A stretch of DNA of 64,000 bases from Xanthomonas codiaei. GTDB taxonomy: Bacteria; Pseudomonadota; Gammaproteobacteria; Xanthomonadales; Xanthomonadaceae. Each line of letters begins with the position of its first letter. Within the stretch, counting starts at the first letter, position 1. A program made the position numbers and the translations under genes. Where the stretch lies: positions 124,001-188,000 of the forward strand of contig NZ_MDEC01000002.1 in the NCBI RefSeq assembly GCF_002939785.1. The letters run 5' to 3'. Below are positions 11,017-45,839 of the stretch, piece after piece. A model generated the notes under the pieces. That model did no database searches. It saw only the letters and a program-made list of their open reading frames with translations, and was not told the origin of the DNA.

Positions 11017-11051
11017 GACCTCGCTGACAGCGGATGCCGCACACAAACGAA

Positions 11052-11076: not shown

Positions 11077-11100
11077 CGTCGATCGGATGCGCAGCGGCGA

Positions 11101-14637: not shown

Positions 14638-14651
14638 GACGGTACGGGCGC

Positions 14652-15350
14652 TCAGGCCGGAAGCGAAAGGTCGGGCAATGCGGAAACGGGCTGCAGCACG
14701 AGGCCGAACTGGCGCGCCAGTTGCTCGAGCAGCACCGCCTTGACGGCGTCCATCCCGGAGGGGCCGCCCAAGTCTAGCACCGAGGTCACCTGCAGACCCT
14801 GGTAGCCACAGGGGTTGATACGGTGGAACGGCTCCAGGTCCATCGCCACGTTGAACGACAACCCGTGGAAGGTGCAGCCACGGCGCACCCGGATACCGAG
14901 TGCGGCGACCTTGGCTGCGCCCACGTAGACGCCGGGCGCGCCGTCGCGACGCTCGGCCAAGATATTCCACTCGTCCAGCGTGTCGATCAGCGCCTGCTCG
15001 ATCTTGCACACGTAATCGCGCACGCCAATCTTGAGTCGGCGCAGGTCCAGCAGCGGATAGACCACCAACTGGCCAGGGCCGTGATAGGTCACCTGCCCGC
15101 CGCGATCGACCTGCAGCACGGGAATCTCGCCCGGCGCCAGCACGTGCTCAGGCTTGCCGGCCTGGCCCAGGGTGAACACCGGCGCGTGCTCGACCACCCA
15201 CACCTCGTCGGCCGCGTGCTCATCACGCGTATCGGTGAAACGCTGCATTGCACGCCACACCGCGGTGTAGTCCTGCTGCCCCAGGTCGCGCAAGTGCGCC
15301 GGCGGGATGGCAACCGGCGCCACGACCGGTTCGGCCGCTACAGCGTCCAC
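14652..15350 (-). CDS. lipB: octanoyl-[acyl-carrier-protein]:protein N-octanoyltransferase
   Basis: A 232-residue enzyme transferring octanoate from acyl carrier protein to lipoyl domains. Diagnostic motifs are [30 protein letters not shown] and the active-site region [14 protein letters not shown] with its catalytic Cys; the Lys of [15 protein letters not shown] is also present. The 5' end overlaps the ybeD-like gene by 13 bases, so ybeD-lipB-lipA form a coupled unit as in many Gammaproteobacteria. Confidence 0.97.
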
Positions 15351-15616
15351 TTCACTTCCGGATGGTCGCGCAGCGCCTGGTGCGCGGCGTCGAACTGCTC
15401 CCGGCTCTCGGCGCGGAAGCCGATCTTGACCGAGACATACTTGCCGCTGGAAGAATGCTTCCAGCTGACGCTTTCCTGCAGCAGCTCCACGCCGGTGGCG
15501 GCGAGCAGGCGCGGAAGCTCCGTCTCCAGGCCACGATCGGCCGCGCCCATGGCGCTGAGCTCGAAGGTGCCGGGAAACTGGAAGCCGTGATCGGGGTTGT
15601 CGGTGCTGATATCCAT
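15338..15616 (-). CDS. ybeD: DUF493 family protein (YbeD-like)
   Basis: A 92-residue small protein with the DUF493 ferredoxin-like pattern: [27 protein letters not shown] and the C-terminal HPEVKWTL. The family is structurally related to allosteric regulatory domains, but its role is unproven. Its fixed position before lipB, here with a 13-base overlap, suggests a link to lipoylation. Confidence 0.9.
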
Positions 15617-15884
15617 CGCCCCATTATCGGGCCGGTGGCGGGCAAACCCAAGTCCATACAGTCCGAAACGACAGGCGGAGCCACGTGCCTGGCACGGACT
15701 CCGCTACATCGCGCCGGACGTCGCGCGCCCAGCAAGGTTCAGCTTGCCGGTCGCGCCATGCGTCTGTCTTGCGGCGTCACCGGACGAGGCCACTGAACAG
15801 GGCGCGATAGATGGGCAGGCGCCTACAAGGTCTCCGGCCAACAACCGCGCACGCCCGATGGCGGCGCGGTTGTCCAATCCGCGT

Positions 15885-16868
15885 TTACTTGGACAATTCC
15901 AACATCGCCGACGACACCCAGCCACGATTACCCATCTCGTCTTCGACTTCCCACATCACGCCTTCCTTGGTGCCGGTGGGATACAGCATCATTCCCGGTT
16001 CCAGTGTGCGGACCGCTGCGCCGGTACCCTTGGCATTGGCCAGCAGGCGCCCCGCGCGCGTCACGGTGACTGCCTGCTGCGCGTTGGACGCAGCCGCGTT
16101 GCCGGACAGGCCGCCAAGCTGGCTGACGATGTCGGTATAGGCCTGCAGATACGCCAAGGTGATCACCTGGCCAATCTCGGTATTGGCATAACCGCCGGCG
16201 CCGGCTGCGCCGTAGTCGCCACTACTGAACACGTTGCCACGCGCGCCCCAGCCGAGGTCGGTCTTTTTTGCATTGCCTTCGGCCATGGCGACCTGTTCGG
16301 ACGAGCGCACATCGGTGATGGTCAAGACAACGTCGGCGGTCTTCTTGCTGAGATTCAGGCCACCGACCAGATTGCCTGCATTGCCACCTACCAACCCGCC
16401 CAGCATTCCGGCAATCGCACTGCCGCCGGCATTGCGATTCTGCGAAATGAGATCAGGCGTCATGACGTAATCGGCCGCGCGAATCTGGCCCTTGCCGATA
16501 TTGGAACGCGCGCGCAGGTCACCGTTGGCGGCCATCTCGCGCTCGCGCTGCGATGCGGCCATGCCTGCGCCCCGGTCCACCAGGGTGAAGCAGCGCGAAC
16601 GGTTGACGAAGACCTTGATCAACTTGGAGGGTGCCGGCAACTGCTGACCGGACCACCAGTTGACCGCATCTTCCGGCTCGATCACCGACAGGCTACCCAG
16701 TGGCTTGGCGCACACCGGAATCTGCGCAACAGCCTCTTTACGCTGGTCCTGCGCGGATCCCTTGAAGGCATCCTTGAAACCGGCCGATGCGGGAGCGCTG
16801 ACACCGGCCAACGCGATACCCAGCAGGCCGGAAAGCACAGCCGCGTTCACAGAAAAAGTCTTGTTCAT
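15885..16868 (-). CDS. CsgG/HfaB-like exported protein with C-terminal SH3-like region
   Basis: A 327-residue protein with a signal peptide (cleavage near PASAGF) and no lipobox Cys. Residues about 60-260 follow the CsgG/HfaB pattern: KLIKVFVNRSRCFTLVDRG, RAADYVMTPDLISQNRNAGG, KKTADVVLTITDVRSSEQV. A Gly-rich stretch (SAIAGMLGGLVGGNAGNLVG) lies in the middle. The last 60 residues (LEPGMMLYPTGTKEGVMWEV, NRGWVSSAML) look like a bacterial SH3 domain, which often binds cell wall. Known CsgG proteins form outer-membrane secretion pores but are lipoproteins; this one is not, so pore function is uncertain. No curli-like genes are nearby. Confidence 0.75.
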   Translation of the reverse strand: MNKTFSVNAAVLSGLLGIALAGVSAPASAGFKDAFKGSAQDQRKEAVAQIPVCAKPLGSLSVIEPEDAVNWWSGQQLPAPSKLIKVFVNRSRCFTLVDRGAGMAASQREREMAANGDLRARSNIGKGQIRAADYVMTPDLISQNRNAGGSAIAGMLGGLVGGNAGNLVGGLNLSKKTADVVLTITDVRSSEQVAMAEGNAKKTDLGWGARGNVFSSGDYGAAGAGGYANTEIGQVITLAYLQAYTDIVSQLGGLSGNAAASNAQQAVTVTRAGRLLANAKGTGAAVRTLEPGMMLYPTGTKEGVMWEVEDEMGNRGWVSSAMLELSK

Positions 16869-17169
16869 TTTATTCCCCTAACACCTGCGCTGCCGTCGAC
16901 AAACGCGATCCGTTGGTGATGAAAGGCCTGCAAAGGCCACCGTTCCTTGGGGCTTCTTCCCCGGGAGCGGATCATATGCTATCCGCGTGGGCTTTTCATC
17001 GCTGCCAGGTAGCAGTGCCGCACACCGTTGATGAAACGGACTGGTGCGCAGGACGCTCCACGCCGTATCGCAGGCGACGGGCATGATGCTGGGTATGTTC
17101 ACGCCGCGCAGCAGTGAGCGCAGGCACCTTTGCTGAACCTAGTCCCTCCTTCACTCCCCCAGGCCCTCC
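16869..17169. other. divergent intergenic region
   Basis: 301 bases between the CsgG-like gene (minus) and lpxR (plus). It holds both promoter regions; no clear -35/-10 pair or operator stood out. Short frames here look like non-coding continuations. Confidence 0.4.
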
Positions 17170-32624: not shown

Positions 32625-34595
32625 ATGTCCGAGCCAGTCGTCGCCGCCGCTTCCATCGTTACGCCGGAGATCGAACCGGATGCCCTCCGGCAGATCAGAC
32701 GGCTGCGCGACATCGCGCCGCTGGCCGCGCCACTGTCGCGCTCGTGGCGACGCTGCCTGGACGATTACGCGCTGCTGCCCGAAGCGACACCCGAGCCACT
32801 GGTGCACGACGCCCTGCACGTGCGCGAGCGCCAGCAGCGGCTGGGCGAGGTGCTGCGCATCGCCAGGGTGGAAATGGAAAACCTGTACGAGCAGATCGCC
32901 GGCAGCGGCTATGCGGTGATTTTCGCCGACGCCGATGCCACCGTGCTGCACAGCGTGCACGACTCCACTTTGCTGCGCGAATTCCGCCAGGCCGGCCTGT
33001 TCTGCGGCGCCAGCTGGGCCGAGTGCCATCAAGGCACCAACGGCCTGGGCACCTGTGCAGCCGAACGCACCGCGGTCAGCGTGCATCGCGGCGAGCATTA
33101 CCTGACCCGCCACCTGCCGCTGTCGTGCAGCGGCGCGCCGATCCTGGACCCGCACGGCAGGCTGCTGGCGGTGCTGGACGCCTCCACGCCCAACGCGCAG
33201 GACAGCAAGCAGATCCAGCGGCACACCATGGCCCTGGTCAGCATGTCGGCCGCGCAGATCTCGCGTTCGCACTTCCTCAACCAGTTCGGTCACGCCTTCA
33301 TCCTGCGTTTCCACAGCCGCCCGGAATTTGCGGGATTGCTGCACGAGGCCTTGATCGCGATCGGTGCAGACGGGCGTGTGCTGGCGGTCAACGAAGCAGT
33401 GCTCGAACAGCTGGGTAAGCTGGACCGCAGCCAGCTGGTGGGCCGTGATATCTCGCAGGTGATGCAGCTGGATTTCGACACCCTGGAACACCGCGCCGGC
33501 AGCGACGCAGGCACCTTGTGGTCGATTCGCTGTGCGTGCCATGGACGGCGCTTCTACGCGCTGGTGCGGCCGCCGCGCGCGCGCGCGGTACCGGCGGTCG
33601 TCGGCGCTGCCGGACAGGCGGCACCGGAGTGCGAACTGCAGCCGGGCGAACATGTCGGCTCTGATTCGCGCATGCGCCACAACCTGGCCAATGCGCTGAA
33701 GCTGGCCGCACATCGCGTTGCGATCTTGCTGCGCGGCGACACCGGCACCGGCAAGGAAGAATTCGCCAAGGCGGTGCATCGCGGCTCGCCGTGGGCCGGC
33801 GGGGCCTTCGTGGCGATCAATTGCGCGGCGATCCCCGAGGCGCTGATCGAAAGCGAATTGTTCGGCTACGCGCGCGGCGCATTCACCGACGCCGCGCGCG
33901 AAGGGCGCCACGGCAAATTGCTGCAGGCCAGCGGCGGCACGCTGTTCCTGGACGAAATCGGCGATATGCCGTTGCCATTGCAGAGCCGCCTGTTGCGCGT
34001 GCTGGAAGAACAATCGGTCACCCCGCTCGGCAGCGAGCGTGCGGTGCCGCTGGAGCTGCACGTCATCAGTGCCAGCCACCGCGATCTGGGGCAACGCGTG
34101 GCCGCAGGCGAGTTTCGCGAGGATCTGTACTACCGCCTCAACGGCGTGGTGCTGCACCTGCCGCCGCTGCGCGAACGCAGCGACAAGGCCGAGCTGATCC
34201 GCACGCTGCTACGCGAGGAAAGCGCCGAACGCAGCGTGCGCATCAGCGAAGAGGCCATGCACAAGCTGCTCAGCTACGCCTGGCCCGGCAATCTGCGTCA
34301 GCTGCGCAACGTGCTGCGCACCGCCGCGGTGCTGTGCAGCGATGGCGTGATCCGGCTGCCCAACCTGCCGCAGGAAATCGTCGATGCCGGCAGCGCGCCG
34401 TGCCTGGTCGATGGCCGCGCGGTAGCCGCCGACGACATGCCCGGCCGCGCCGCACTGGATCAGGCCGAACGCGTGGTGCTGCAACAACAACTCGAACGCC
34501 ATCGCTGGAACGTCAGCCGCACCGCCGATGCACTGGGGATCAGTCGCAATACGCTGTATCGCAAGCTGCGCAAGCACGGTCTGGATACCGGGTGA
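32625..34595 (+). CDS. sigma-54-dependent activator, AcoR-like (GAF / AAA+ / Fis)
   Basis: A 656-residue enhancer-binding protein. Residues about 80-210 are a GAF sensor domain with Cys in FCGASWAECHQGTNGLGTCA, typical of AcoR-type regulators; a PAS-like segment follows (about 235-310). The AAA+ core has Walker A GDTGTGKE (371-378), the sigma-54 contact loop GAFTDA (418-423, where the consensus is GAFTGA) and Walker B TLFLDEIGD (439-447). The C-terminus is a Fis-type helix-turn-helix (WNVSRTADALGISRNTLYRK). It faces the alcohol-oxidation operon, whose first gene has a sigma-54 promoter, so it probably activates that operon in response to an alcohol, ketone or quinoid signal. Confidence 0.93.
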   Translation: MSEPVVAAASIVTPEIEPDALRQIRRLRDIAPLAAPLSRSWRRCLDDYALLPEATPEPLVHDALHVRERQQRLGEVLRIARVEMENLYEQIAGSGYAVIFADADATVLHSVHDSTLLREFRQAGLFCGASWAECHQGTNGLGTCAAERTAVSVHRGEHYLTRHLPLSCSGAPILDPHGRLLAVLDASTPNAQDSKQIQRHTMALVSMSAAQISRSHFLNQFGHAFILRFHSRPEFAGLLHEALIAIGADGRVLAVNEAVLEQLGKLDRSQLVGRDISQVMQLDFDTLEHRAGSDAGTLWSIRCACHGRRFYALVRPPRARAVPAVVGAAGQAAPECELQPGEHVGSDSRMRHNLANALKLAAHRVAILLRGDTGTGKEEFAKAVHRGSPWAGGAFVAINCAAIPEALIESELFGYARGAFTDAAREGRHGKLLQASGGTLFLDEIGDMPLPLQSRLLRVLEEQSVTPLGSERAVPLELHVISASHRDLGQRVAAGEFREDLYYRLNGVVLHLPPLRERSDKAELIRTLLREESAERSVRISEEAMHKLLSYAWPGNLRQLRNVLRTAAVLCSDGVIRLPNLPQEIVDAGSAPCLVDGRAVAADDMPGRAALDQAERVVLQQQLERHRWNVSRTADALGISRNTLYRKLRKHGLDTG

Positions 34596-34706: not shown

Positions 34707-37091
34707 TCAAAGCGCCCACCGCACCCCGATCAGATACTGCCGGGGCACCCCCGGTGCCAGAAAGCGGGCCGGTCCGGTTTCCACCGGCGATTGCTGCGGG
34801 CGGGCGAGTTCGCCGTCGGGGAACACATCTTCGGCCACGGCGGCATAGGTGGCGTACTGGCGATCGAACACATTGTCGATGCGTGCGAACAGCGACACGC
34901 GCGCAGTGATGGCCCAGCGCGCCTGCAGATCCACCAGCGCGTAGCCGGCGGTGCCGATGTCGATGCGCCCGGGCGCGGCCTCGCCGTCTTCGGCGTTGTC
35001 GACCTGGCCGTCTTCGTTGCCGCTGGCGACCCGCCCGGAGACCGCGCGCATGCCCACTCCCAGCGTCAGCGCATCGCGCTGCCACTCCACCCCGAGCTTG
35101 AGGTTGTGCCGCGGTAGCGCGGCGATCCGCAGGCCCGGCCGCAGGGCGATCACGCGTTCGCCGGACAACAGTTCGCCGCTGCTGCGATAGGTCGCATCCA
35201 GATAGCTGTAGCCGGCCGACCACTGCCAGTCGCCGCTGCGCAGGTGCAACGCGAGATCGGCGCCCTGGTAGCGGGTACGGCCGACATTATCGAAATAGCC
35301 CAGTTGAGTATCCGGTGCGCGCAGGAACAGGATGTCGTCGCGATTGTCGGCGCGGTACACCGACAGCGTGGCGTGGCTGTCGGCCGATGGCGTCCAGCGC
35401 GCGCCCAGCTCGTAGGTGCGCGAGACGATCTGCTCCAGGCGCGGGTCGGCCTGCAGGCCGGTGGGCAACCGGCATGGCTGGGTGGGATCGGCGCAGCCCA
35501 GCTCGATGGCCGTGGGCGCGCGCGTGTTCTGCGCCACCGAGCCGTACACGGTCAGGCCTGACTCCAGCCGATGGGTGAGACCCAGCGAGGGGTTGGCCTT
35601 GGCGTAGACGAAGCGCTCGCGCGGGCGGTCGCCATCGTCGGCGGTGGAGAGGATGTTGTCGACCACCACGCGGTTCCAGCGCACGGCGGCGGTGAGATGG
35701 GTGGCCGCGTCCAGCTCCCAGGTATCTGCGATGAACGCACCCAGCGTCTTGGTGCTGCCGCGCACGCCGGAAAAGAACGCACGCTCGGCATCGGGGTCTG
35801 CCTGCACCGAACGGTCCGGCTGCACCCAGCCATCACGGGCGAATTGCAGATACCGCACATGCCCGCGATCGAAGGTGACCCCGGCACTGAGCGCATGCGC
35901 GCCCCATTGCTTGCTCAGATTGATCGCAAGCCCCTGCGCATCCTGGCGCATCTGGGTGGTGTTGAGCGCACCGGTCGGCAGCGTGTCTGCATCGGCACGC
36001 GCCACATCGCACTCGGCGTCCAGGGCCGTACCATCGGCCGCGTAGCCGGAGGCGCATTCTTCGACGAACTCTTCGTAGTCTTCGCCGATATCGCCGTTGA
36101 CGGTGTCGCGCCGCCCCACCCGCGAGTACGCCAACGCATGCAGCGCAGTGTCGGCATCGAAGCGATGATCCAGTTGCGCGGTCAGCAGCGTGTTGCGATT
36201 GCGGGTGAGGTCGGGCGAGGTGTAAACCGCGCGGCGATCGGCGCGATACAGCCCGGGCTCTGGCCCTTCATCGGTGTAGCGCGTCTCCGGCAGCAGGCCA
36301 TTGCCGATCAGGCGGCTGCGCCCGTGCAACAGCGACAGGCTCCAGTCGGTGTCCTCGCCCTGTCGCCCGAGCTTGCCGAACAGCGTGCCCAGGCGCCCTT
36401 CGGAGGCATCGCGCCAACCGTTCTCGTCGAATCCGGTCACCGCCACATACCCATGCCAGCCATCGGCGCCGGCAACGCCATAACCGGCATCCAGCCGCTT
36501 GCGCGCACCACTGCCGATGCTCAGTTCGCCCTGCACTCCGGGCGCGGTCAGGCCGGAGGCGGTGGTCAGCACCACCGCACCGCCGAGCGTGTTCGGCCCG
36601 AACAAGGGGTTGGAACCAGGCATCAGGGTCACCGCCGTGATGGCCGCTTCGGGCAGCATGTCCCAGCTGACGATGTCGGCGAACGGTTCGTTGACGCGTA
36701 CGCCATCCAGGTACACCGAGACCCCTTGCGAGGCACCCGGCAAGGCCGAGGCGCGAAAGCCGTGGAAGGTGAGATCGTTCTGGAACGCGCTGCCCTGCAC
36801 GTCGTTGCCGTCCACGCCGACGAAGCGCCGTTGCAGCAGGTCGCCGAGATTGTTGCTGCGCCCGCGCGACAACTGCGCGTCGGTGGCCGACTGCACCATG
36901 TACGGCAACTGCGCCGCGTCGATGGTGGTGCCGGGGATCGGCGTGGCGGTGACCTCGATCCGGTCCAGCCAGGTCGCCTGCGGCGCGTCTGCCGCCGCGA
37001 CCTGCGCACTGCCGGCAAGCAACGCCAGCATACAGGCGCCCACCAGTGCGCGACGTCGAAGTAGCGTGGTCCTGCAGTTGCCGGCTGCCAT
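34707..37091 (-). CDS. TonB-dependent outer-membrane receptor
   Basis: A 794-residue receptor with a signal peptide (cleavage near QVAAAD). The plug domain (about 45-160) shows DRIEVTATPIPG, DLLQRRFVGVDGNDVQGSAF, VSVYLDGVRVNEPF and NPLFGPNTLGGAVVLTT. The beta barrel follows and ends with the typical aromatic strand (RQYLIGVRWAL), preceded by FARIDNVFDRQYATYAAVA. It is last in the PQQ-dehydrogenase operon, 11 bases after the alcohol dehydrogenase gene. Ligand unknown. In other bacteria, TonB receptors linked to lanthanide-type dehydrogenases carry metal-chelator complexes, so a metallophore or PQQ is plausible, but that is inference. Confidence 0.92.
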   Translation of the reverse strand: MAAGNCRTTLLRRRALVGACMLALLAGSAQVAAADAPQATWLDRIEVTATPIPGTTIDAAQLPYMVQSATDAQLSRGRSNNLGDLLQRRFVGVDGNDVQGSAFQNDLTFHGFRASALPGASQGVSVYLDGVRVNEPFADIVSWDMLPEAAITAVTLMPGSNPLFGPNTLGGAVVLTTASGLTAPGVQGELSIGSGARKRLDAGYGVAGADGWHGYVAVTGFDENGWRDASEGRLGTLFGKLGRQGEDTDWSLSLLHGRSRLIGNGLLPETRYTDEGPEPGLYRADRRAVYTSPDLTRNRNTLLTAQLDHRFDADTALHALAYSRVGRRDTVNGDIGEDYEEFVEECASGYAADGTALDAECDVARADADTLPTGALNTTQMRQDAQGLAINLSKQWGAHALSAGVTFDRGHVRYLQFARDGWVQPDRSVQADPDAERAFFSGVRGSTKTLGAFIADTWELDAATHLTAAVRWNRVVVDNILSTADDGDRPRERFVYAKANPSLGLTHRLESGLTVYGSVAQNTRAPTAIELGCADPTQPCRLPTGLQADPRLEQIVSRTYELGARWTPSADSHATLSVYRADNRDDILFLRAPDTQLGYFDNVGRTRYQGADLALHLRSGDWQWSAGYSYLDATYRSSGELLSGERVIALRPGLRIAALPRHNLKLGVEWQRDALTLGVGMRAVSGRVASGNEDGQVDNAEDGEAAPGRIDIGTAGYALVDLQARWAITARVSLFARIDNVFDRQYATYAAVAEDVFPDGELARPQQSPVETGPARFLAPGVPRQYLIGVRWAL

Positions 37092-37102
37092 AGCTGTCTC
37101 CC

Positions 37103-38209
37103 TCAATAAAGCACGATCGATTTGATGCCGCGCGCCGAACGCAGATCCGCCAGCGCCTGATTGATGTCGTCCAATGCGAGCGTGCGGGTGATCAGCGGTG
37201 CCAGCTGGAGATCGCCACGCAGATAACGCTCCACATAGCCGGGCAACTCGCTGCGCCCCTTCACCCCGCCGAACGCACTGCCGCGCCATACCCGCCCGGT
37301 GACCAGCTGGAATGGACGTGTGCTGATTTCCTGCGCATCGTCGGCCACGCCGAGAATGACGCTTTCGCCCCAGCCCTTGTGGCAGCACTCCAGCGCCGCG
37401 CGCATTGCGCCGACATCGCCCACGCATTCGAAGCTATGGTCGGCACCGCCATCGGTGAGGTCCACGATCACCTGCTGGATCGGCGCGCCGTAGTCGCGCG
37501 GATCCAGGCAATCGGTGGCGCCCAGCGCGCGTGCCAGCGCGAATTTTCCGGGGTCGATATCCACCGCGATGATGCGCCCGGCCTGTGCCAGTATGGCGCC
37601 CTGGATGACCGACAAGCCGATCCCGCCCAGACCGAACACCGCCACGCAATCGCCGGGCCGCACATGCGTGCTGTTGAGCACCGCACCCACCCCGGTGGTG
37701 ACCGTGCAGCCGAGCAGGCAGACCTGATCCAGCGGCGCATCCGGGTGGATGCGCGCCACCGCGATCTCCGGCAGCACGGTGTATTCGGAAAACGTGCTGG
37801 TGCCCATGTGGTGCAGGATCGGGCGCCCATGCAAGGAGAACCGGCTGCTGCCATCGGGCATCAGGCCGCGCTCCTGGCTGCTGCGGATCGCCTGGCACAG
37901 GTTGGTGCGCCCGGAGCGGCAGAACTTGCACACCCCGCACTCGGGCATGTAGAGCGGGATGACGTGATCGCCGGCACGCACGCTGGTGACGCCGATGCCG
38001 ACATCTTCGACGATACCGGCCCCCTCCTGCCCCAGGATCGCCGGGAAGCTGCTTGCCTGCCCGTGCGCCAACGCATGCGCGTCGCCATGGCAGATGCCGG
38101 TGGCGACCAGGCGCACCAGCACTTCACCGGGGCGCGGCGGCTGCAGATCCACTTCTTCGATGGTCAGCGGCTGATGCGCAGCCCAGGCCACCGCGGCACG
38201 TGTCTTCAT
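37103..38209 (-). CDS. zinc-type alcohol dehydrogenase, class III-like (formaldehyde/long-chain), with altered zinc site
   Basis: A 368-residue medium-chain dehydrogenase closest to class III (S-(hydroxymethyl)glutathione dehydrogenase) in length and pattern. The structural-zinc lobe is intact (CGVCKFCRSGRTNLC), as are the NAD-binding GLGGIGL and AVDIDPGKFALARALGATDC. The first catalytic-zinc Cys (GICHGD, Cys40) and the third (GCTVTTG) are present, but the His of the usual GHE motif is Gln61 (ILGQEGAG). This could weaken zinc binding or change chemistry. It follows GGGAGG at good spacing and lies in the PQQ operon, where it could oxidise aldehyde, for example formaldehyde-glutathione, made by the periplasmic enzyme. 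Confidence 0.88.
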   Translation of the reverse strand: MKTRAAVAWAAHQPLTIEEVDLQPPRPGEVLVRLVATGICHGDAHALAHGQASSFPAILGQEGAGIVEDVGIGVTSVRAGDHVIPLYMPECGVCKFCRSGRTNLCQAIRSSQERGLMPDGSSRFSLHGRPILHHMGTSTFSEYTVLPEIAVARIHPDAPLDQVCLLGCTVTTGVGAVLNSTHVRPGDCVAVFGLGGIGLSVIQGAILAQAGRIIAVDIDPGKFALARALGATDCLDPRDYGAPIQQVIVDLTDGGADHSFECVGDVGAMRAALECCHKGWGESVILGVADDAQEISTRPFQLVTGRVWRGSAFGGVKGRSELPGYVERYLRGDLQLAPLITRTLALDDINQALADLRSARGIKSIVLY

Positions 38210-38244
38210 CCCGCCTCCCCGGCGCGTATCGGCATGGCCGCCAC

Positions 38245-39324
38245 TCAGCGCGCGATGACCACGCCCCACGGCAGTTCGCCGACAGGGATCTGTTTGAGTT
38301 CGCGCAAGCTGGCGGTATCGATCACGCTCACCGTATTGGAACGCCCGTTGGCCACATACAGCTTGTCGCCGGCCGGTGTGAGCGCCGGGTTCCAGGGCCG
38401 CAGGCCGACCGCGATCTCGGCCACGCTGCGGCCCTGCCGGGTGTCGATCACGCTCACCGTGCCGGCGCCGCCGTTGGATGCGTACAACCGCGCGCCATCG
38501 CCCGACAGGGCGACCCCGGCGGTGCGCACGCCGGCCGGCAGGCTGGCGCGGCGCGTGCGGGTCTTCAGATCGATCACATCCACTACGTTGGCGGTTTCCT
38601 GCGCGATGTAGACGCTGTGTCCGTCCGGGGCGAACGCCATCCCGCGCGGGTGCCCGCTGGTGGCGACCACGCCACGCGACTGGTGCGTGGCCAGTTCGAT
38701 CATGTCCATGTCGTTGGAACCTTCGTTGCTGGTGAGCAGCCACTGCCCGTCCGGCGTGTACGCGCAGTGTTCCGGTGCCTGCCCGCGCGTGGCGATGACC
38801 TCCTGCACGCGGAACCGCGCCGCATCGATCAGCATCACCTGGTTCTGCCCTTCCACGCACACGGCGAACTGGGTGCCATCGGGCGAGCGGGCGATGCCTT
38901 CGGCGTTCTCGCCGATGTCCACCTGGCGCAGCACGGTGTCCTTGGCGGTATCCAGTTCGATCAACCGGTGATGCTGCGCATCGATCAGATACAGCAACCC
39001 CTGTGGCCCAGGCAGTACCTGCTGCAGGCGCTTGCCGAGCTGGCCCTGCGCGCTGAGCGTACGCACCACGGTGTCGCTGGCGGTGTCGATCACCGACACC
39101 GTGCCGCTACGCTGATTGGGCACATACGCAAACACCGGCGGCGTTGCAGGCGCCGGCGCGGCATCGGTGGCGCCTGCCGGTGCGGAGACCGTGGGCGCCG
39201 CCGTGGAGGCGGTCGCCGGCGCGTCGCGCTGGCAGCCGGCCAGCAGAAGCAGTGCGCCGAGTACCCCGCCAAGAGGCAGGCGCAGCCAGGCGCCGGAGGC
39301 CGCTCTCGATGCGCCTGGCCTCAT
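38245..39324 (-). CDS. beta-propeller lipoprotein of PQQ-dependent catabolism (YVTN family)
   Basis: A 359-residue lipoprotein (LLLLAGC, Cys31) with an Ala/Pro/Thr linker of about 35 residues. Seven or so YVTN-type blades follow, for example VPNQRSGTVSVIDTASDTVV, LYASNGGAGTVSVIDT and LYVANGRSNTVSVIDTASL. Similar propellers accompany quinoprotein alcohol dehydrogenases in many Proteobacteria, with no proven activity; a scaffold or cofactor-handling role is likely. The start overlaps the cytochrome c stop by four bases (ATGA). Confidence 0.88.
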   Translation of the reverse strand: MRPGASRAASGAWLRLPLGGVLGALLLLAGCQRDAPATASTAAPTVSAPAGATDAAPAPATPPVFAYVPNQRSGTVSVIDTASDTVVRTLSAQGQLGKRLQQVLPGPQGLLYLIDAQHHRLIELDTAKDTVLRQVDIGENAEGIARSPDGTQFAVCVEGQNQVMLIDAARFRVQEVIATRGQAPEHCAYTPDGQWLLTSNEGSNDMDMIELATHQSRGVVATSGHPRGMAFAPDGHSVYIAQETANVVDVIDLKTRTRRASLPAGVRTAGVALSGDGARLYASNGGAGTVSVIDTRQGRSVAEIAVGLRPWNPALTPAGDKLYVANGRSNTVSVIDTASLRELKQIPVGELPWGVVIAR

Positions 39325-39944
39325 TGCGCCTTGCCCGCGGTCTTGTTGATCGAATGGATGAAGGCCAGCAGTTTTTCGGTATCGCCGGGCTTGAGCACCG
39401 GTGCGAACGGCGGCATCTGCCCGACGACCTTTTCATGCCCGATGCGGGTCTTGCCGTGGGTGATCATCGCAGCGGTGCCTTCGCTGATCAGCGTGCGCAA
39501 GGTGTCGTCGTCGCCGCCGTACACCCACACATCGTTGGTCAGCGGCGGGCACATGCCACCGCCACCGGTGCCGCCATGGCAGGCGTTGCAGCCGGCCGAG
39601 AAATAGATCTTCTTGCCTTCGGCCACCAGCTCCGGGGTGACCTTGACCTCGGGCCCCTTCGGAATCGGCACCACGGTGGCCGGCGGGGCGGGCGGAGTGG
39701 CCGGATCGGGCGCAGGCCCGGCAGCGGGATTGGGCGTTGCCGGCGGTGCGGCAGCGGACGCGGGCGCTGTGGCGGCTGGTGCGGGCGCTGGTGCGCCGGC
39801 GGCAGCGGGCGTTGCCGCATCCGGCGCCGCGGCGGGCGGTGGCGCTTCTTCCTTGCCGCATGCCGCCAGCACGGCACTGAGCAGCGCGCCGCACAGCGCT
39901 GCGCGGACGGAACGATCGATACAACCCACGGTGGACTTGCGCAT
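39321..39944 (-). CDS. c-type cytochrome lipoprotein
   Basis: A 207-residue protein with lipobox SAVLAAC (Cys29), an Ala/Pro-rich linker to about residue 95 and one class I cytochrome c domain. The haem motif is CNACH (119-123), followed by a candidate axial Met in VVGQMPPFAPVL. Nearby KIYFSAGCN and PLTNDVWVYGGDD match cytochromes that take electrons from PQQ dehydrogenases. It should pass electrons from the dehydrogenase two genes upstream to the respiratory chain. The membrane anchor and long linker would let it swing within the periplasm. ATG at 39980 is a less likely start, adding 12 polar residues before the signal peptide. Confidence 0.92.
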   Translation of the reverse strand: MRKSTVGCIDRSVRAALCGALLSAVLAACGKEEAPPPAAAPDAATPAAAGAPAPAPAATAPASAAAPPATPNPAAGPAPDPATPPAPPATVVPIPKGPEVKVTPELVAEGKKIYFSAGCNACHGGTGGGGMCPPLTNDVWVYGGDDDTLRTLISEGTAAMITHGKTRIGHEKVVGQMPPFAPVLKPGDTEKLLAFIHSINKTAGKAQ

Positions 39945-40004
39945 GAACGAACCTTTCTGATCGGAGGGAACACCGCGCACCCGTGCACGCAGTGGATGAA
40001 ACAG

Positions 40005-41789
40005 TCAGCGTCTGGAGGGGCGCCCGGCATCGCTCAACAGCGCGGCCAGCGCGGTATCGCCACGGTCCTGCGCCAACGCTGCGGCAGTCTTGCCTTCGCG
40101 ATTGCGTGCAGCCGGGTCCGCGCCGGCGGCGAGCAGGCGTTTGGCAACCTGTTCGCGTCCGGCCGCCGCGGCCAGCATCAGGGCGGTGACACCGGCCTGG
40201 TTGGCGTGCCCTACATCGGCGCCGCGCGCGAGCAGCGCGTCGAGAATGGCCGGGTCGTCGCGTGCCACTGCAAACATCGCCGGCGTAAAGCCGGTGGCGT
40301 TGGCGCGCCGTACATTCGCGCCGGCGGCGAGCAGTGCCTGGACCACTTCGGCATCGGCGTAGGACACCGCCAGATCCAGCGCGCTCCAGCCATCACCGGA
40401 CACGGTGTCCACCGGCGCGCGCTTGCGCAGCAGGCGGCCGACACTGTCGGCATCGTTGGCCCAGGCCGCCTTCATCAACGCGGTCCAGCCGCTGGCATCG
40501 CGCGCATCCAGCCGTGCGCCGGCATCCAGCAGCAGGCCGACCAGATCCGGTTCCTGGTTGCGGATGGCCTGATGCAGTGGCGGCTCACCGAGCAGGTTGG
40601 GCGTGTTGGCATCGGCACCATGCCGCAGCAACCAGGCCGCACGTACCGCATCGCCGGCATCCAGCGCATGCGCCAGTTCCTGGTTGGGGTCGGCACCATC
40701 GGCAATGCGCAACTGCAACTGCGCCAGCTCCTGCGAGGAGGCGGCAGGACTGCGCGCAGTCGATGCGGCGGCCGGTGTGGCGTAAGGTCCATGCGACGGC
40801 AGATCGCCAGCCACGATGCAGTCGCTGCAACGGACCAGCGGCACGTGATAGTCATGCAGGATCTGCGCGATCCTTGCCGCGTTGTCCTGCAGCGCCTTGT
40901 TCAATGCATCGCGGAGCGGCGCGTTCTTGCGCGACACCGCCCACGCCATCGAGTACTCCAGCACCGCATCGTCGATGGTGTTCAACGGCACCATGCCCAG
41001 CCCGCCACGTGCGGCGTAGTAGCCGGCCACCGGCCCCCAGGATTCGGCCGCATCCAGCTGGTTGGCGGCCACCCGCTCCACCAGCTTGCCCGGGTGCTCT
41101 TCCGGCGCGCTGGCCGAGTCGTAGAACAGGTATTGCACCTCGCCGCTGATACCATGCTCGTACAGCGCCTGGCGCGCAGGCGAACTCTGGAACACGCCCA
41201 GCTTGATCGATTTGAGCGCCGCATCGTCCAGCGAGCGCGGCCTCAACTCCAGGCCCTTGCGCGTCACCAGCACATAGGTGGAACGGTACACCGGGCGCGT
41301 GGTCAGGCCTTGCTCGAAGTCGCTATTGAGATCCATCAGCAGATCGCAGCGGCCGGCATTGATGGTGCTGCGCGCCAGTCCGCGCTGGTAATAGGTGCGC
41401 CATTCGTATTCCAGCCGCCGGCCCATGGCATCGGCGACGACGTGCGCAATCTTGTTCTGGAAGCCTTCGCCGGCCTTGTTGGACAACGGCATGTTGCCCG
41501 GGTCTGCGCAGACGCGCAGCACTGTGGGATCGGGCGCAGGTGGCGGCGTGTTGGCCGGCGTCTGCGCAGCGGCTGGCGCTGCGGTGGATGCCATGGATGC
41601 AGGTGTCGCTGTGGACGCCGCACCGGAATCGGAAGCGCGAGCCGCCGGTGAGGACGGCTCGCGTGTGCAACCTGCGGCGACGAGTCCGAGGCTGCAAACC
41701 AGCAGCACGGTGTGCAGGTGCCGGTGGGTACCGCGCAGGCCGGCAGCGAGCTGCCGACCTGCGCGTCCAACGCCTTGCGTGGATGTCAT
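40005..41789 (-). CDS. quinoprotein-associated substrate-binding lipoprotein fused to ankyrin repeats (XoxJ/MoxJ-like)
   Basis: A 594-residue lipoprotein (LVAAGC, Cys41). Residues about 75-345 form a periplasmic substrate-binding domain (LRVCADPGNMPLSNKAGEGF, NKIAHVVADAMGRRLEYEWR, INAGRCDLLMDLNSDFEQGL) of the kind always found beside methanol/ethanol quinoprotein dehydrogenases (MoxJ/XoxJ). A CSDC motif follows. Residues about 395-594 carry five or six ankyrin repeats (GEPPLHQAIRNQEPDLVGLL, GWTALMKAAWANDADSVGRL, GVTALMLAAAAGREQVAKRL). An ankyrin tail on such a protein is unusual and suggests docking to another protein. MoxJ/XoxJ proteins are thought to help mature the dehydrogenase. It overlaps the dehydrogenase gene by four bases (ATGA). 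Confidence 0.88.
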   Translation of the reverse strand: MTSTQGVGRAGRQLAAGLRGTHRHLHTVLLVCSLGLVAAGCTREPSSPAARASDSGAASTATPASMASTAAPAAAQTPANTPPPAPDPTVLRVCADPGNMPLSNKAGEGFQNKIAHVVADAMGRRLEYEWRTYYQRGLARSTINAGRCDLLMDLNSDFEQGLTTRPVYRSTYVLVTRKGLELRPRSLDDAALKSIKLGVFQSSPARQALYEHGISGEVQYLFYDSASAPEEHPGKLVERVAANQLDAAESWGPVAGYYAARGGLGMVPLNTIDDAVLEYSMAWAVSRKNAPLRDALNKALQDNAARIAQILHDYHVPLVRCSDCIVAGDLPSHGPYATPAAASTARSPAASSQELAQLQLRIADGADPNQELAHALDAGDAVRAAWLLRHGADANTPNLLGEPPLHQAIRNQEPDLVGLLLDAGARLDARDASGWTALMKAAWANDADSVGRLLRKRAPVDTVSGDGWSALDLAVSYADAEVVQALLAAGANVRRANATGFTPAMFAVARDDPAILDALLARGADVGHANQAGVTALMLAAAAGREQVAKRLLAAGADPAARNREGKTAAALAQDRGDTALAALLSDAGRPSRR

Positions 41790-43801
41790 CGTGCCGTCTT
41801 CGCTGCAGCATTGGCGGTGCCGCCACCGGCGGAGGCGGTGGCCGTTGCAGTGGCGGACACGGTCTTGCCGGCCCCATCGATGCGGAAGGTGTGCACCATG
41901 CCGCCCAGCGGGATCTTGTCGAAACCGGCGCCAAAGGCCAGCCCGGCCGCACCCAGCGCGCCGTACGGATCGGACGGATCCAGACCTGCGGTGACCGGCA
42001 GGCCAATCCAGCCGCCGATTCCGGAGAACACCGCAATGTACTGGTGTCCGTTGGCCTTGTAGGCGATCGGGTTGCCGATGATGCCGGACGGCAGCTTCAT
42101 CTCCCACAGCTTCTTGCCGGTGTCCTTGTCCACCGCACGGAACCAGCCATCCAGGGTGCCGTAGAACACCAGCCCGCCATCGGTGACCAGGGTGCCGCTC
42201 CACACCGGGAACTTCTCCTTGATCTCCCACTTGGACTTGCCTTCCACCACGTCGAAGGCCTTGACGATGCCTAACGCGCCGGGCTCGTTCGGCTTCATCA
42301 TCACATTGGCGAACACATATGGCAGGCCCATCATGGTGTTGCCGCGTTCCTGCGGCTCCAGCTCCATGTGCCAGTTATTGGTGCCGCAGAAGAACACGGC
42401 CGAATTGGCCGGATCCACCGAACACGGCTGTTGATCCTTGCCGCCCATCGCCGACGGAAACGCCTGCACTTTCTTGCCGCGTTCCAGCGGCGAATGCGCA
42501 GCCACCTTCACCGGCCGGCCGGTCTTCATGTCGATGCGTTCGGCCCAGTTGGCCGGCACGAATTTATGCGCGCGCAGCAGCGTGCCATCGCGACGATCGA
42601 GCACATAGGCAAAGCCGTTGCGGTCGAACTGCACCACCGACGGGACCTGCTTGCCGTCGATGGTCAGGTCCACCAGGATCGGCTCGTTGATGCCGTCGTA
42701 GTCCCACTGGTCGAACGGGGTCTTCTGGTAGCCCCATACCGCTTCGCCGGTATCGATCTTGCGCGCGAACAGCGTCATCGACCACTTGTTGTCGTGTTCA
42801 CCGTTATTGCATTCCTCCTGCGTGGTCTTGCCGCAGCGATACGACGGGCTCCACAGGCCAGGATTGCCGGTGCCGTAGTAGACCAGCTTCAACTTGGGGT
42901 CGTAGCTGTACCAGCCCCAGGCCGCACCGCCGCCGCGCTTCCATTCGTCGTTGGGGAAGGTCTTCACCCCGAGATCGCCGAGCTGGCCGTATTGCGGATT
43001 GGCCTTGTTGAAATCCGGCCCCAGGCAGATCGCCTTGTCGGTACCGGCCGCGTCGCAGGACCAGGCCTGCTTGCCGTCGGCCAGGTTGTAGGCGGCCACG
43101 CGCCCGAGTACGCCGAACTCGTTGCCGCTGATGCCGGCCACCACCTTGCCGTCGGCGATGATCGGGGCCATGGTGATGGTTTCGCCCTTGTCCGGGTGCG
43201 CGAGTTTCTGCTTCCACGCTTCCTTGCCGGTCTTGGCATCGAGTGCGATCACATCGCCGCTGAGGCTGCCGAACACCAGCTTGCCATCGGCATACGAAGC
43301 GCCGCGGTTGACCGTGTCGCAGCACGCCACCGCCACCGAACGCTCGTCCTGTTGCGGGGTGTATTTCCACAACACCTTGCCGCCGTCTTCCTGCGCGGCC
43401 AGGTCGATGGCGAACACGTTGTTGGGATACGCGCTGACCATGTACATGATGTTGCCGATCACCAGCGGCTGACCTTCGTGACCGCGGGTGGCATCGGTCT
43501 TCATTTCCCACGACATCTTCAGGTTCTTGACGTTGTCGCGATTGATCTCGGCCAGCGGGCTGTGCCGGGTGAGCGCGAAATCGCGACCGACGCCGCCCCA
43601 GTTATCCGCATTGCTGGCATTGGCGGCGAATTCGCTGTCGGTATCCACCACGGCAGCGGCCGGCGCCGCCGCCGGGGCTGCTGCAGGTGCCGGCGCGGCG
43701 GTTTCGGCCGGCGTGTCCTTCTTGCAACCGGATAACACGGCGCTCAGCGCGAGCATCAGCAGCGCGCCGCTACGAACGCTGCGACAGGAAGATTGGTGCA
43801 T
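41786..43801 (-). CDS. PQQ-dependent alcohol dehydrogenase, lanthanide-type active site, lipoprotein
   Basis: A 671-residue quinoprotein with the eight-bladed propeller of the methanol/ethanol dehydrogenase family. It begins with a lipobox (AVLSGC, Cys26) and an Ala/Pro linker, unlike typical soluble periplasmic XoxF or MxaF. Active-site residues are visible: adjacent Cys160-Cys161 (vicinal disulfide under PQQ), Glu228 (GNEFG), Asn313 (TGNPG) and Asp367 in QWDYDG. Asp369, two residues on, is the extra Asp that marks lanthanide-dependent enzymes (XoxF, ExaF/PedH); calcium enzymes have Ala, Ser or Thr there. Two additional Cys (RCGKTTQEEC) sit in the insert before the catalytic loop. It heads the six-gene operon behind a sigma-54 promoter. 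Substrate is probably a small primary alcohol. Confidence 0.93.
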   Translation of the reverse strand: MHQSSCRSVRSGALLMLALSAVLSGCKKDTPAETAAPAPAAAPAAAPAAAVVDTDSEFAANASNADNWGGVGRDFALTRHSPLAEINRDNVKNLKMSWEMKTDATRGHEGQPLVIGNIMYMVSAYPNNVFAIDLAAQEDGGKVLWKYTPQQDERSVAVACCDTVNRGASYADGKLVFGSLSGDVIALDAKTGKEAWKQKLAHPDKGETITMAPIIADGKVVAGISGNEFGVLGRVAAYNLADGKQAWSCDAAGTDKAICLGPDFNKANPQYGQLGDLGVKTFPNDEWKRGGGAAWGWYSYDPKLKLVYYGTGNPGLWSPSYRCGKTTQEECNNGEHDNKWSMTLFARKIDTGEAVWGYQKTPFDQWDYDGINEPILVDLTIDGKQVPSVVQFDRNGFAYVLDRRDGTLLRAHKFVPANWAERIDMKTGRPVKVAAHSPLERGKKVQAFPSAMGGKDQQPCSVDPANSAVFFCGTNNWHMELEPQERGNTMMGLPYVFANVMMKPNEPGALGIVKAFDVVEGKSKWEIKEKFPVWSGTLVTDGGLVFYGTLDGWFRAVDKDTGKKLWEMKLPSGIIGNPIAYKANGHQYIAVFSGIGGWIGLPVTAGLDPSDPYGALGAAGLAFGAGFDKIPLGGMVHTFRIDGAGKTVSATATATASAGGGTANAAAKTAR

Positions 43802-43899: not shown

Positions 43900-43916
43900 A
43901 GCACAGCGCGTGCCAG
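43900..43916 (-). promoter_or_regulatory. sigma-54 (-24/-12) promoter of the PQQ dehydrogenase operon
   Basis: Minus-strand sequence CTGGCACGCGCTGTGCT matches the consensus YTGGCACGN4TTGCW at all but one position. GG and GC are correctly spaced. Predicted transcription start is near 43889, about 88 bases before the dehydrogenase start codon. The activator gene at 32625-34595 encodes a sigma-54 enhancer-binding protein. Confidence 0.7.
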
Positions 43917-43982: not shown

Positions 43983-44008
43983 AAAGTGTCACGCATTCGG
44001 CACACTTT
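43983..44008 (-). promoter_or_regulatory. candidate upstream activator site (inverted repeat)
   Basis: AAAGTGT and ACACTTT, a perfect 7-bp inverted repeat with a 12-base spacer, centred about 80 bases upstream of the -24 element. This is the distance and form expected for binding of a Fis-type enhancer-binding protein. Confidence 0.45.
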
Positions 44009-44485
44009 GCGCCTTACGTGCTGTCGCGCTGGTGGAGCACTGCGCACGCCTGCGTGTGGAGATACGGCACAGCTGCGCGTGGCCACGCAGGTCATGCCGA
44101 CTGTGCTGGAGAACGTGGGAACGCCTTGCTTGCCTCCGCCCGCCGGGAGGCGGCGCCCGATGAAGGATGCGAGCGGGCACCGCACTGTTGGAGCCACCGC
44201 GCGACCCATCGATGCTGCACGCGCCGTGCAGCGTCTTTGCGCGATGTACTGAGAATATGCCGACAGTCCCCGGGCCGTACCCTCACCCCAACCCCTCTCC
44301 CGCGGGGAGAGGGGCTTCAAACACGGCACCGACGATTTACTTCTCCCACCGGGACATTGAGAGCGGCTGACGACATGTAGCGAGCGGTCGTCAGGTGGGG
44401 GCGGACGGCGTGCTCAGCACCGGAGTATCCGCGTGGTACATGCCGCACCGAGCAGCGGCCTCGCAGTAGCGTTGTCAGCTGCCCC

Positions 44486-45119: not shown

Positions 45120-45839
45120 TTATTTCCAGCCCGGCATTTGCGTGGTATCCAGGCCACCGACCTCGAACTCGGCCGTGCGCGTTCCGCCGGCCTTGACCGG
45201 GAAGGCGATGCTGATGCGCTTGGCATTACGCACCACTTTCCACAGCGCCTTGTCGTCGTCGATGAACATGGCGATCGCTTCATCGGTGTCCGGGCGGTGG
45301 GCGGCCATCGCGCGCGGTGCGCCACCATCGGCGGCGACCTGCACCTTGCAGCCGCCGTAGCAATTGAAGTCGCCGGCCTTGAGCACGAGATAGCTGTGGC
45401 GCTTCCACTGCGGGTGATCGCGGAACACCAGGCTCACCGGCTTGGGCCCGCTGCCGTCCACATCCACGCGCTGCTTGGCATCGATCATCGCCGAGCGCTG
45501 TGTGCCGCCCTTGGCCGGTACCTGCGAGTACTGCCAGAGCGCCTGCATGCAACGCAGTTCGCGCGCCTGCTCGCCCTTGGCCTTGATGTCGGCATAGCCG
45601 GGTTCGATGCGCGTGGCGGCCGCGGTGCCGGCATAGCCTTCGAGCAGGGCCGCACCGTGGGCGCGCGCCATGTCCCAGTTCTGCGCCTTGACCGCTTCGT
45701 CGTATTGCTTGGCGAGCGCATCGGCCTTGGTTTCCTTGGCCTGCGCCTGCGCGGTTTCCTGCGCCTTGCGTTGCGCCTCGCGGTCGGTGCAGGCGCTCAG
45801 GGCCGCAACGCACAAGGCCGCGCTCAGCAGATACTTCAT
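45120..45839 (-). CDS. lipoprotein of unknown function
   Basis: A 239-residue lipoprotein (VAALSAC, Cys17). Residues about 18-60 are a charged, Ala/Gln/Lys-rich helix likely to be a coiled coil (REAQRKAQETAQAQAKETKA). The remainder (VDVDGSGPKPVSLVFRDHPQ, GDFNCYGGCKVQVAADGGAP, DEAIAMFIDDDKALWKVVRN, RISIAFPVKAGGTRTAEFEV) looks like a compact beta-rich domain with one Cys pair. I do not recognise the family. It is translationally close to the HAD hydrolase gene. Confidence 0.75.
   Translation of the reverse strand: MKYLLSAALCVAALSACTDREAQRKAQETAQAQAKETKADALAKQYDEAVKAQNWDMARAHGAALLEGYAGTAAATRIEPGYADIKAKGEQARELRCMQALWQYSQVPAKGGTQRSAMIDAKQRVDVDGSGPKPVSLVFRDHPQWKRHSYLVLKAGDFNCYGGCKVQVAADGGAPRAMAAHRPDTDEAIAMFIDDDKALWKVVRNAKRISIAFPVKAGGTRTAEFEVGGLDTTQMPGWK

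What the first reader, a model, noticed from the sequence alone, without database searches (positions are those of the whole stretch)
34707..43801. Alcohol-oxidation island with a lanthanide-type PQQ dehydrogenase in a plant-associated gammaproteobacterium
Seen: six minus-strand genes, four junctions with four-base or very short spacing: PQQ dehydrogenase, substrate-binding/ankyrin lipoprotein, cytochrome c, beta-propeller, Zn alcohol dehydrogenase and TonB receptor. The dehydrogenase has Glu228, Asn313, Asp367 and the extra Asp369 (QWDYDG). Known: this Asp two residues after the catalytic Asp marks lanthanide-dependent XoxF/ExaF enzymes. Inference: the organism oxidises a small alcohol (methanol from pectin demethylation is an attractive source) using a rare-earth cofactor. 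Nothing in the window makes PQQ, so that would come from elsewhere.
Basis: partly seen in the sequence, partly recalled or inferred. Interest (0 to 1): 0.75.

Follow-up and report, generated by a model that had tools for sequence, protein, structure and literature searches.

The report
Probable lipid-anchored rare-earth alcohol-oxidation operon
A plant-associated Xanthomonas carries a gene cluster, shared by most of its genus, for oxidising a small alcohol, probably methanol, with a rare-earth-type enzyme, and the cluster's exported proteins look tethered to a membrane instead of floating free as in more distant relatives.

Summary
In detail: six minus-strand genes, 34707-43801, with Glu228/Asn313/Asp367/Asp369 as stated. 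The dehydrogenase is XoxF1: nearest solved relative 7o6z, an XoxF1 solved with neodymium (893 bits; XoxF2 622; XoxF5 and MxaF 520 or less), and 100/100 support in a 46-row tree. PQQ genes lie elsewhere in the genome. xoxF is full or nearly full length in 25 of 34 congeners. XoxF1 in this family is already mentioned in print, so the gene is not new.

New as far as my searches reach: (1) XoxF, a XoxJ-ankyrin fusion, the cytochrome and a beta-propeller all end their signal peptides in a lipobox-like cysteine followed by an Ala/Pro linker in Xanthomonas, while deeper XoxF1 relatives have ordinary signal peptides; XoxJ's motif (AAGC) fails the strict lipobox rule. (2) A conserved sigma-54 promoter and upstream footprint precede xoxF; a convergent sigma-54 activator follows the operon. 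(3) The "Zn alcohol dehydrogenase" is a class III (FrmA-type) paralogue whose zinc-ligand His is Gln in 26 of 26 copies, under purifying selection, beside an intact frmA/frmB pair elsewhere. Lanthanide use, methanol as substrate and lipidation are inferred; one XoxF1 has been reported with calcium.

The parts
41786..43801 (-). xoxF1: PQQ-dependent methanol dehydrogenase, 671 aa, predicted lipoprotein (LSGC, Cys26) with about 40-residue Ala/Pro-rich linker
   Evidence: TIGR03075 594 bits over cut-off 480; metal ligands; 7o6z 893 bits; tree; lipobox
40005..41789 (-). xoxJ-ankyrin fusion, 594 aa, lipobox-like AAGC; XoxJ domain about 91-319, ankyrin repeats about 352-588
   Evidence: TIGR03871 253.5 bits over cut-off 212 plus Ank families; XoxJ structure 6onp 135 bits; ankyrin part modelled at pLDDT mostly 80-95, XoxJ part poorly; motif meets the looser rule, not the strict one
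39321..39944 (-). c-type cytochrome in the XoxG position, predicted lipoprotein (LAAC) with 80-residue Ala/Pro-rich linker
   Evidence: PF00034; MoxG model only 25.6 bits, below cut-off 147.8; best PDB hits are CcoP; lipobox
38245..39324 (-). YVTN beta-propeller of the PQQ-associated kind, predicted lipoprotein (LAGC)
   Evidence: TIGR02276 repeats over cut-off; TIGR03866 159.5 bits, below cut-off 287; lipobox
37103..38209 (-). adhC2: class III alcohol dehydrogenase paralogue with zinc-ligand His replaced by Gln and Thr by Gly
   Evidence: TIGR02818 600.5 bits over cut-off 544, against 743 for the housekeeping copy; alignment with human class III enzyme; 26 of 26 copies
34707..37091 (-). TonB-dependent receptor, ligand unknown (candidate for a metal chelate, by inference)
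   Evidence: PF00593 and PF07715; no NCBIfam receptor over cut-off; start codon uncertain
32625..34595 (+). sigma-54-dependent activator (AAA+ and Fis-type HTH), convergent with the operon
   Evidence: PF00158, PF02954; found in 19 of 24 loci that reach the receptor gene
43900..43915 (-). sigma-54 (-24/-12) promoter candidate TGGCACG-N4-GTGCT
   Evidence: 11 of 12 consensus positions; 10-12 of 12 in 30 of 30 Xanthomonas-type loci, window included
43986..44035 (-). conserved upstream footprint, candidate activator-binding site
   Evidence: column conservation 0.71-0.89 per ten columns against 0.43-0.67 on either side, in a 29-row alignment

Best explanation
This is a XoxF1-type PQQ alcohol-oxidation operon of Xanthomonas. 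A sigma-54 activator encoded at its far end switches it on from a -24/-12 promoter. XoxF1 oxidises a small alcohol, most likely methanol freed from plant pectin, in the periplasm using PQQ and a light lanthanide, and hands electrons to the neighbouring cytochrome and so to a terminal oxidase. XoxJ-ankyrin helps mature or hold the enzyme. Unlike more distant XoxF1 systems, the enzyme, its helper, its cytochrome and the propeller are lipid-anchored, each on a flexible Ala/Pro tether, so the chain works on a membrane surface. Formaldehyde is then removed by the intact frmA/frmB pair elsewhere; the operon's altered class III dehydrogenase does a related but changed reaction. The gain is energy and detoxification, not growth on methanol as sole carbon. 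Shown by sequence: clade, residues, gene content, conservation, lipobox-like cysteines, promoter site, zinc-site change. Inferred: metal, substrate, electron path, lipid attachment, regulation.
For: XoxF1 clade, 100/100; nearest structure 7o6z, 893 bits, deposited by PMC8546591 as neodymium XoxF1 (passages), which puts XoxF1 and XoxF2 at Km 0.8-3.6 uM methanol. PqqB, PqqC, PqqE over cut-off; pqqE in 35 of 35 genus genomes, 34 over cut-off. All six genes in 23 of 29 named loci. Lipobox tables. Promoter in 30 of 30 Xanthomonas-type loci, footprint. frmB and a canonical class III copy over cut-off side by side. dN/dS 0.03-0.32 over the seven genes.
Against: A XoxF1 from Methylomirabilis was reported to hold calcium and MxaI (PMC6028718 passage). 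The cytochrome does not pass the MoxG model. No RuBisCO match, no HPS over cut-off, no TIGR01591 formate dehydrogenase over cut-off, only an FdhF-like protein. XoxJ's AAGC fails the strict lipobox rule in 28 of the 29 rows that pass the loose one. Lipidation of XoxF was only predicted, never tested, in X. campestris (PMC8739992 passages). Eight of 34 congeners lack an intact xoxF (two with remnants) and one more has it split.
Confidence: 0.7

Rival explanations
1. The enzyme is XoxF1 by descent but works with calcium, as reported for the Methylomirabilis enzyme; Asp369 is ancestral and compatible with either metal.
For: Passage in PMC6028718 on Wu et al. 2015.
Against: Asp369 is kept in all XoxF1-clade rows listed; the nearest solved enzyme holds neodymium (PMC8546591 passages); no mxaI-like gene among the nine proteins scanned here.
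Confidence: 0.15
2. The operon is mainly for another alcohol or for aldehyde detoxification, not methanol; the altered class III dehydrogenase marks a different substrate.
For: Zinc-site changes in adhC2, conserved in 26 of 26 copies; no RuBisCO match and no HPS over cut-off.
Against: Characterised XoxF1 enzymes are methanol dehydrogenases with micromolar Km (PMC8546591 passage); adhC2 still scores over the class III cut-off.
Confidence: 0.25
3. The lipobox-like cysteines are coincidental, for some or all of the four, and the proteins are cleaved by signal peptidase I like other XoxF proteins.
For: No experiment shows lipid; PMC8739992 says none of its predicted lipoproteins was characterised; XoxJ's AAGC is off the strict rule and its n-region is long.
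Against: The cysteine and the Ala/Pro-rich linker are kept in all four proteins across the genus and differ together from deeper relatives; DOLOP calls the X. campestris XoxF a lipoprotein.
Confidence: 0.12

Closest known systems
XoxF1 methanol dehydrogenase of Methylacidimicrobium thermophilum AP8 (PDB 7o6z)
   Same: Same clade (100/100), same ligand set and FDQWDYDG motif
   Different: AP8 enzyme was purified from the supernatant after ultracentrifugation (PMC8546591 passage); the window enzyme has a lipobox and tether
XoxF/XoxG/XoxJ systems of Methylorubrum extorquens (6oc5, 6onp)
   Same: Enzyme plus XoxJ plus cytochrome; XoxJ domain matches 6onp at 135 bits
   Different: 6oc5 is only 517 bits away and falls outside the XoxF1 clade; here XoxJ carries a C-terminal ankyrin domain; cytochrome not close to the MoxG model. 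The organism behind 6onp is recalled.
XoxGJ fusion of Methylacidiphilum fumariolicum SolV
   Same: XoxJ fused to another domain (row of a transcriptome table, PMC5623727 passage)
   Different: There XoxJ is fused to a cytochrome, here to ankyrin repeats
FrmA / class III alcohol dehydrogenase (human chi chain, 1m6h)
   Same: 477 bits over the whole length
   Different: Zinc-ligand His is Gln, Thr of CHTD is Gly or Ser, and the loop after it differs (residue roles recalled)
X. campestris pv. campestris XC_0679 'methanol dehydrogenase'
   Same: Predicted lipoprotein signal nearly identical (PMC8739992 Table 4, passage); expression up 5.4-fold in a lolB mutant
   Different: Nothing about operon, metal, clade or partners in the passages seen

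Membership tests
XoxF1 clade of PQQ methanol dehydrogenases | Groups with XoxF1 reference and apart from XoxF2, XoxF5 and MxaF | tested here: met
   14-row clade 100/100 with 7o6z in a 46-row tree. No XoxF3 or XoxF4 reference was included by name.
XoxF1 clade of PQQ methanol dehydrogenases | Glu, Asn, catalytic Asp plus second Asp two residues on | tested here: met
   E228, N313, D367, D369
Lanthanide-dependent alcohol dehydrogenases | Lanthanide bound and needed for activity | not testable with these tools
   Needs protein; one clade member reported with calcium
Methanol/ethanol PQQ dehydrogenase family TIGR03075 | Score over curated cut-off | tested here: met
   594.2 against 480.05
ExaF/PedH ethanol dehydrogenases | Closest to the quinoprotein ethanol dehydrogenase structures | tested here: not met
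   6zcv, 6zcw and 1flg at 317 bits or less against 893 for 7o6z
XoxG / cytochrome cL | Score over MoxG model cut-off | tested here: not met
   25.6 against 147.8 bits; position in operon is the main support
XoxJ (TIGR03871) | Score over curated cut-off | tested here: met
   253.5 against 212.15; the ankyrin domain is extra
S-(hydroxymethyl)glutathione dehydrogenase (TIGR02818) | Score over equivalog cut-off | tested here: met
   600.5 against 543.95; housekeeping copy 743.1
S-(hydroxymethyl)glutathione dehydrogenase (TIGR02818) | Intact catalytic zinc site (Cys, His, Cys; recalled) | tested here: not met
   His is Gln in 26 of 26 operon copies; His kept in 3 of 3 other copies L077, L082, L085
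Bacterial lipoproteins | Strict lipobox [LVI][ASTVI][GAS]C ending the signal peptide (XoxF, cytochrome, propeller) | tested here: met
   Window proteins LSGC, LAAC, LAGC
Bacterial lipoproteins | Strict lipobox ending the signal peptide (XoxJ-Ank) | tested here: not met
   AAGC in the window; strict rule met by 1 of 32 rows (L072), looser rule by 29 of 32
Bacterial lipoproteins | Lipid on the cysteine | not testable with these tools
   Needs labelling or mass spectrometry

The most novel reading that the evidence does not exclude
In the Xanthomonas line, and perhaps already in its common ancestor with some Lysobacter, a whole periplasmic rare-earth alcohol-oxidation chain (enzyme, XoxJ-ankyrin helper, cytochrome, propeller) was converted together from soluble to lipid-anchored proteins. 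It then works as a tethered electron relay: the cytochrome's roughly 80-residue Ala/Pro tether lets it swing between enzyme and respiratory membrane. Beside it sits a class III dehydrogenase that kept its fold but swapped its zinc ligand for a new reaction on the alcohol's product.
Probability: 0.36. Interest if true: 0.68.

Novelty: new variant of a known kind. Interest (0 to 1): 0.5.

Why it matters
Xanthomonas is a large genus of plant-dwelling bacteria that is rarely counted among methanol users. A conserved, regulated rare-earth methanol oxidation operon in most of its species would link plant cell-wall breakdown to bacterial energy supply and add this genus to rare-earth biology. A membrane-tethered layout would be a new architecture for XoxF systems, and the zinc-ligand swap in a conserved class III dehydrogenase is a clean biochemical puzzle. 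All three are directly testable by gene removal and standard assays.

Tried and rejected
Rejected: ExaF/PedH membership (scores). Rejected: PqqU identity for the receptor (76 bits against a cut-off of 1200). Rejected: sX9 sRNA as part of the operon; its Rfam match at 44365-44441 is strong, but a blastn of it against 33 loci hit only L057 (two places) and L076 (one), so it is not a fixed neighbour. Rejected: an inverted repeat AAAGTGT-N12-ACACTTT upstream; it is in the window only, 1 of 29 upstream rows; the wider footprint stands.

Led nowhere: plasmid search (3 records, about 1% of the query each); AlphaFold of XoxJ-Ank with 9 sequences gave mean pLDDT 59, useful only for the ankyrin part, so no fold search was run; a count of lipoboxes over window ORFs was faulty (2 of 43; it missed the operon's own genes because of its 200-residue limit and longest-ORF choice) and is not used, so I have no background rate for lipoboxes; the first anchor pattern for XoxF found only 16 rows and was replaced, where at least one of the 29 positive XoxF rows is a mis-hit (111-residue linker); the strict recount replaces both for XoxF.

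Rows dropped: L088 (fragment) and L118 (same gene as L090) from the tree. In one search two printed lipobox hits for L085 (cytochrome, propeller) and one each for L057 (xoxJ), L055 (adhC) and L082 (propeller) fall in the wrong place; I judged them false by eye. L082's propeller does have a true lipobox further on. The pattern searches did not find every row: of 35 sources, 2 were missing for XoxF, 3 for XoxJ, 11 for the cytochrome and 6 for the propeller.

Full report
Gene content. The window lies in an unnamed 5.04 Mb genome whose nearest named full-length matches for xoxF are Xanthomonas floridensis and X. pisi, 98% identity. The six genes are xoxF, a XoxJ-ankyrin fusion, a c-type cytochrome, a YVTN propeller, a class III alcohol dehydrogenase paralogue and a TonB receptor, read on the minus strand from 43801 to 34707. 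A sigma-54-dependent activator follows, convergent, at 32625-34595.

Which enzyme. By sequence the nearest solved structure is 7o6z (893 bits), then XoxF2 4mae (622), MxaF 4tqo (520) and XoxF5 6oc5 and 6dam (517, 504); the ethanol enzymes 6zcv, 6zcw and 1flg score 317 or less (the clade labels XoxF2 and XoxF5 and the source organisms are recalled). PMC8546591 deposited 7O6Z as a neodymium-containing XoxF1 of Methylacidimicrobium thermophilum AP8 (passages). In a sample of 398 genomes of the phylum, 40 had a match at E <= 1e-110; the only hits over 50% identity were the window genome, G099 (62%) and G413 (57%), so XoxF1 is rare in that sample.

Metal. The second aspartate is present in all rows except 4tqo and L084, where it is alanine. 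This fits lanthanide use. Against it, the introduction of PMC6028718 (passage) says that a XoxF1 from Methylomirabilis was purified with MxaI and calcium. I therefore do not treat lanthanide dependence as proven.

Distribution. Of 34 congeners, 24 have full-length xoxF (query 1-671), one starts at residue 36 (G004), one is split in two frames (G019), two hold remnants (G012, G033) and six show only weak matches. Of the 29 named loci, 23 hold all six genes (X. euvesicatoria L071 with split xoxF and L053 with a shorter XoxJ-Ank match are among them); L063 (X. arboricola pv. juglandis) lacks xoxJ-ank; three contigs end early (L058, L068, L070); Lysobacter L072 has the first four genes but not adhC2, a close receptor (26% match only) or the activator nearby; X. 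vasicola L076 keeps part of xoxF and the end of the receptor gene (in the same contig, L087, xoxF pieces reach about residue 351). In G012 (L086) a similar deletion has different end points, which suggests at least two losses. The activator is present in 19 of the 24 loci that reach an intact receptor gene; in the other five the fetched sequence ends 0.1-2.9 kb beyond it. dN/dS between the window and up to eight other loci is 0.03-0.32 for the seven genes.

Lipid anchors. In the window XoxF (LSGC), cytochrome (LAAC) and propeller (LAGC) meet the strict lipobox [LVI][ASTVI][GAS]C; XoxJ-Ank has AAGC, which does not. The cysteine is followed by Ala/Pro-rich linkers of 40, 80, 33 and, for XoxJ-Ank, 49 residues. 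Strict rule: XoxF 28 of 33 rows found, cytochrome 20 of 24, propeller 21 of 29, XoxJ-Ank 1 of 32 (L072). Looser rule: cytochrome 21 of 24 and propeller 28 of 29, XoxJ-Ank 29 of 32. XoxF rows without it are L058 (frame disturbed upstream), L072 (PAAC), L082, L083 and L085; XoxJ rows without even the loose form are L082, L083 and L085. In Lysobacter L072 only XoxJ is strict; XoxF, cytochrome (LGAC) and propeller (LMAC) are borderline. The deeper relatives L083 and L085 have plain signal peptides for XoxF and XoxJ, L083 also for the propeller, and L118 for XoxF, XoxJ and propeller; L082 has a lipobox on the propeller only. So the set appears to have become anchored near the base of the Xanthomonas group; the branch that would join Lysobacter L072 to it and leave L082 outside is weak (83/53). 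In print, PMC8739992 (passages) lists the X. campestris XoxF as a DOLOP-predicted lipoprotein, up 5.4-fold in a lolB mutant, and states that none of its candidates was characterised. Searches for XoxJ with ankyrin (0 papers) and XoxF with lipoprotein (12 papers, seen as a listing only) showed no account of an anchored XoxF system. Likening the tethered cytochrome to cytochrome c_y of Rhodobacter is recalled, not tested.

XoxJ-ankyrin. The fusion runs in one frame through L082, L083, L085 and L118, so it belongs to this XoxF1 branch; the MxaF-type locus L084 has a XoxJ-like protein in which the ankyrin-motif count was 0. AlphaFold models the ankyrin part well (pLDDT mostly 80-95 from about residue 360 to 590) and the XoxJ part poorly.

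Regulation. A -24/-12 site scoring 10 to 12 of 12 lies upstream of xoxF in the window, in 28 of 28 named Xanthomonas-type loci (L048-L076 without L072) and in L080; the best sites of L072, L082 and L085 score 9, 8 and 9, and L083 has a 10 of 12 site at -45 (L118 was not in that test). In the whole window, both strands, two sites score 11 or more and nine score 10 or more. Some 71-120 bases upstream of it a 50-base block is conserved (0.71-0.89 per ten columns) between poorly conserved stretches; a second conserved block (0.78-0.83) touches the promoter itself. That the convergent activator binds there is inference. A search for XoxF with sigma-54 gave two papers; the passages of PMC5623727 show the terms in unrelated rows, and PMC11237559 was seen in the listing only.

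The altered dehydrogenase. adhC2 passes the class III model with 600 bits, the other copy of this genome with 743. Its alignment with the human enzyme shows His replaced by Gln in ILG(H/Q)EG and Thr by Gly in CH(T/G)D. Gln is present in 26 of 26 operon copies examined (window, 24 named loci, L080), with Ser in place of Gly in L067, L069 and L075, while His and Thr are kept in L077 (this genome's other copy, next to frmB), in L085 and in L082, whose copy lies beside its xoxF. So the change is confined to the Xanthomonas group as sampled. dN/dS of 0.03-0.24 says it is a working protein, not decay. The role of these residues as zinc ligand and proton relay is recalled.

What it probably does. PQQ is made in the genome: PqqB, PqqC and PqqE pass their cut-offs in one stretch, and pqqE does so in 34 of 35 genus genomes, including ones without the operon. 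Formaldehyde can go through frmA/frmB. For formate only an FdhF-like protein passes a cut-off (TIGR01591 none). No RuBisCO match and no HPS over cut-off were found; isocitrate lyase is present, and the serine cycle was not otherwise tested. I read the operon as giving energy and removing alcohol, not as full methylotrophy.

What is in print. PMC9258066 (passages) states that the xoxF1 gene in Xanthomonadaceae suggests methylotrophic potential, and lists the family among 13C-methanol-labelled taxa. Searches on Xanthomonas with XoxF1, lanthanide, xoxF, PQQ-dependent and methanol dehydrogenase showed no study of this operon in their listings beyond the lolB paper; subscription papers are mostly not held.

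Verdict. The enzyme class in this family is known; the probable anchored layout, the XoxJ-ankyrin fusion, the sigma-54 control and the altered class III enzyme make it a new variant.

Noticed in passing
window 44365-44441 (-): Rfam sX9 Xanthomonas sRNA, 69.5 bits, between the HAD gene and xoxF; weaker blastn matches occur in L057 (two) and L076 (one) of 33 loci, so it looks like a dispersed element.
   Followed up: partly
window 45120-45839 (-): A 239-residue protein with its own lipobox-like LSAC and no Pfam or NCBIfam match; by its signal sequence it matches X. campestris XC_0677, which rose about 7-fold in a lolB mutant as XoxF did (PMC8739992 passage).
   Followed up: no
L076 (X. vasicola NCPPB 2417) and L086 (unnamed G012): Large deletions that removed most of the operon, with different end points, while the promoter site still stands in L076.
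   Followed up: partly
L063 (X. arboricola pv. juglandis), 10001-17148: xoxJ-ank and the usual 5' part (signal and lipobox) of the cytochrome gene are missing while the rest of the operon remains.
   Followed up: no
L118 8989-10581: XoxJ-ankyrin fusion beside a XoxF1 in a genome listed as same phylum but not same class, so the fusion is older than the Xanthomonas group or has moved between classes.
   Followed up: partly
L084 (G099), 6986-11439: The genome that holds XoxF1 locus L083 also holds a MxaF-type dehydrogenase (Ala at the second Asp) with a XoxJ-like protein and a sigma-54 activator.
   Followed up: no
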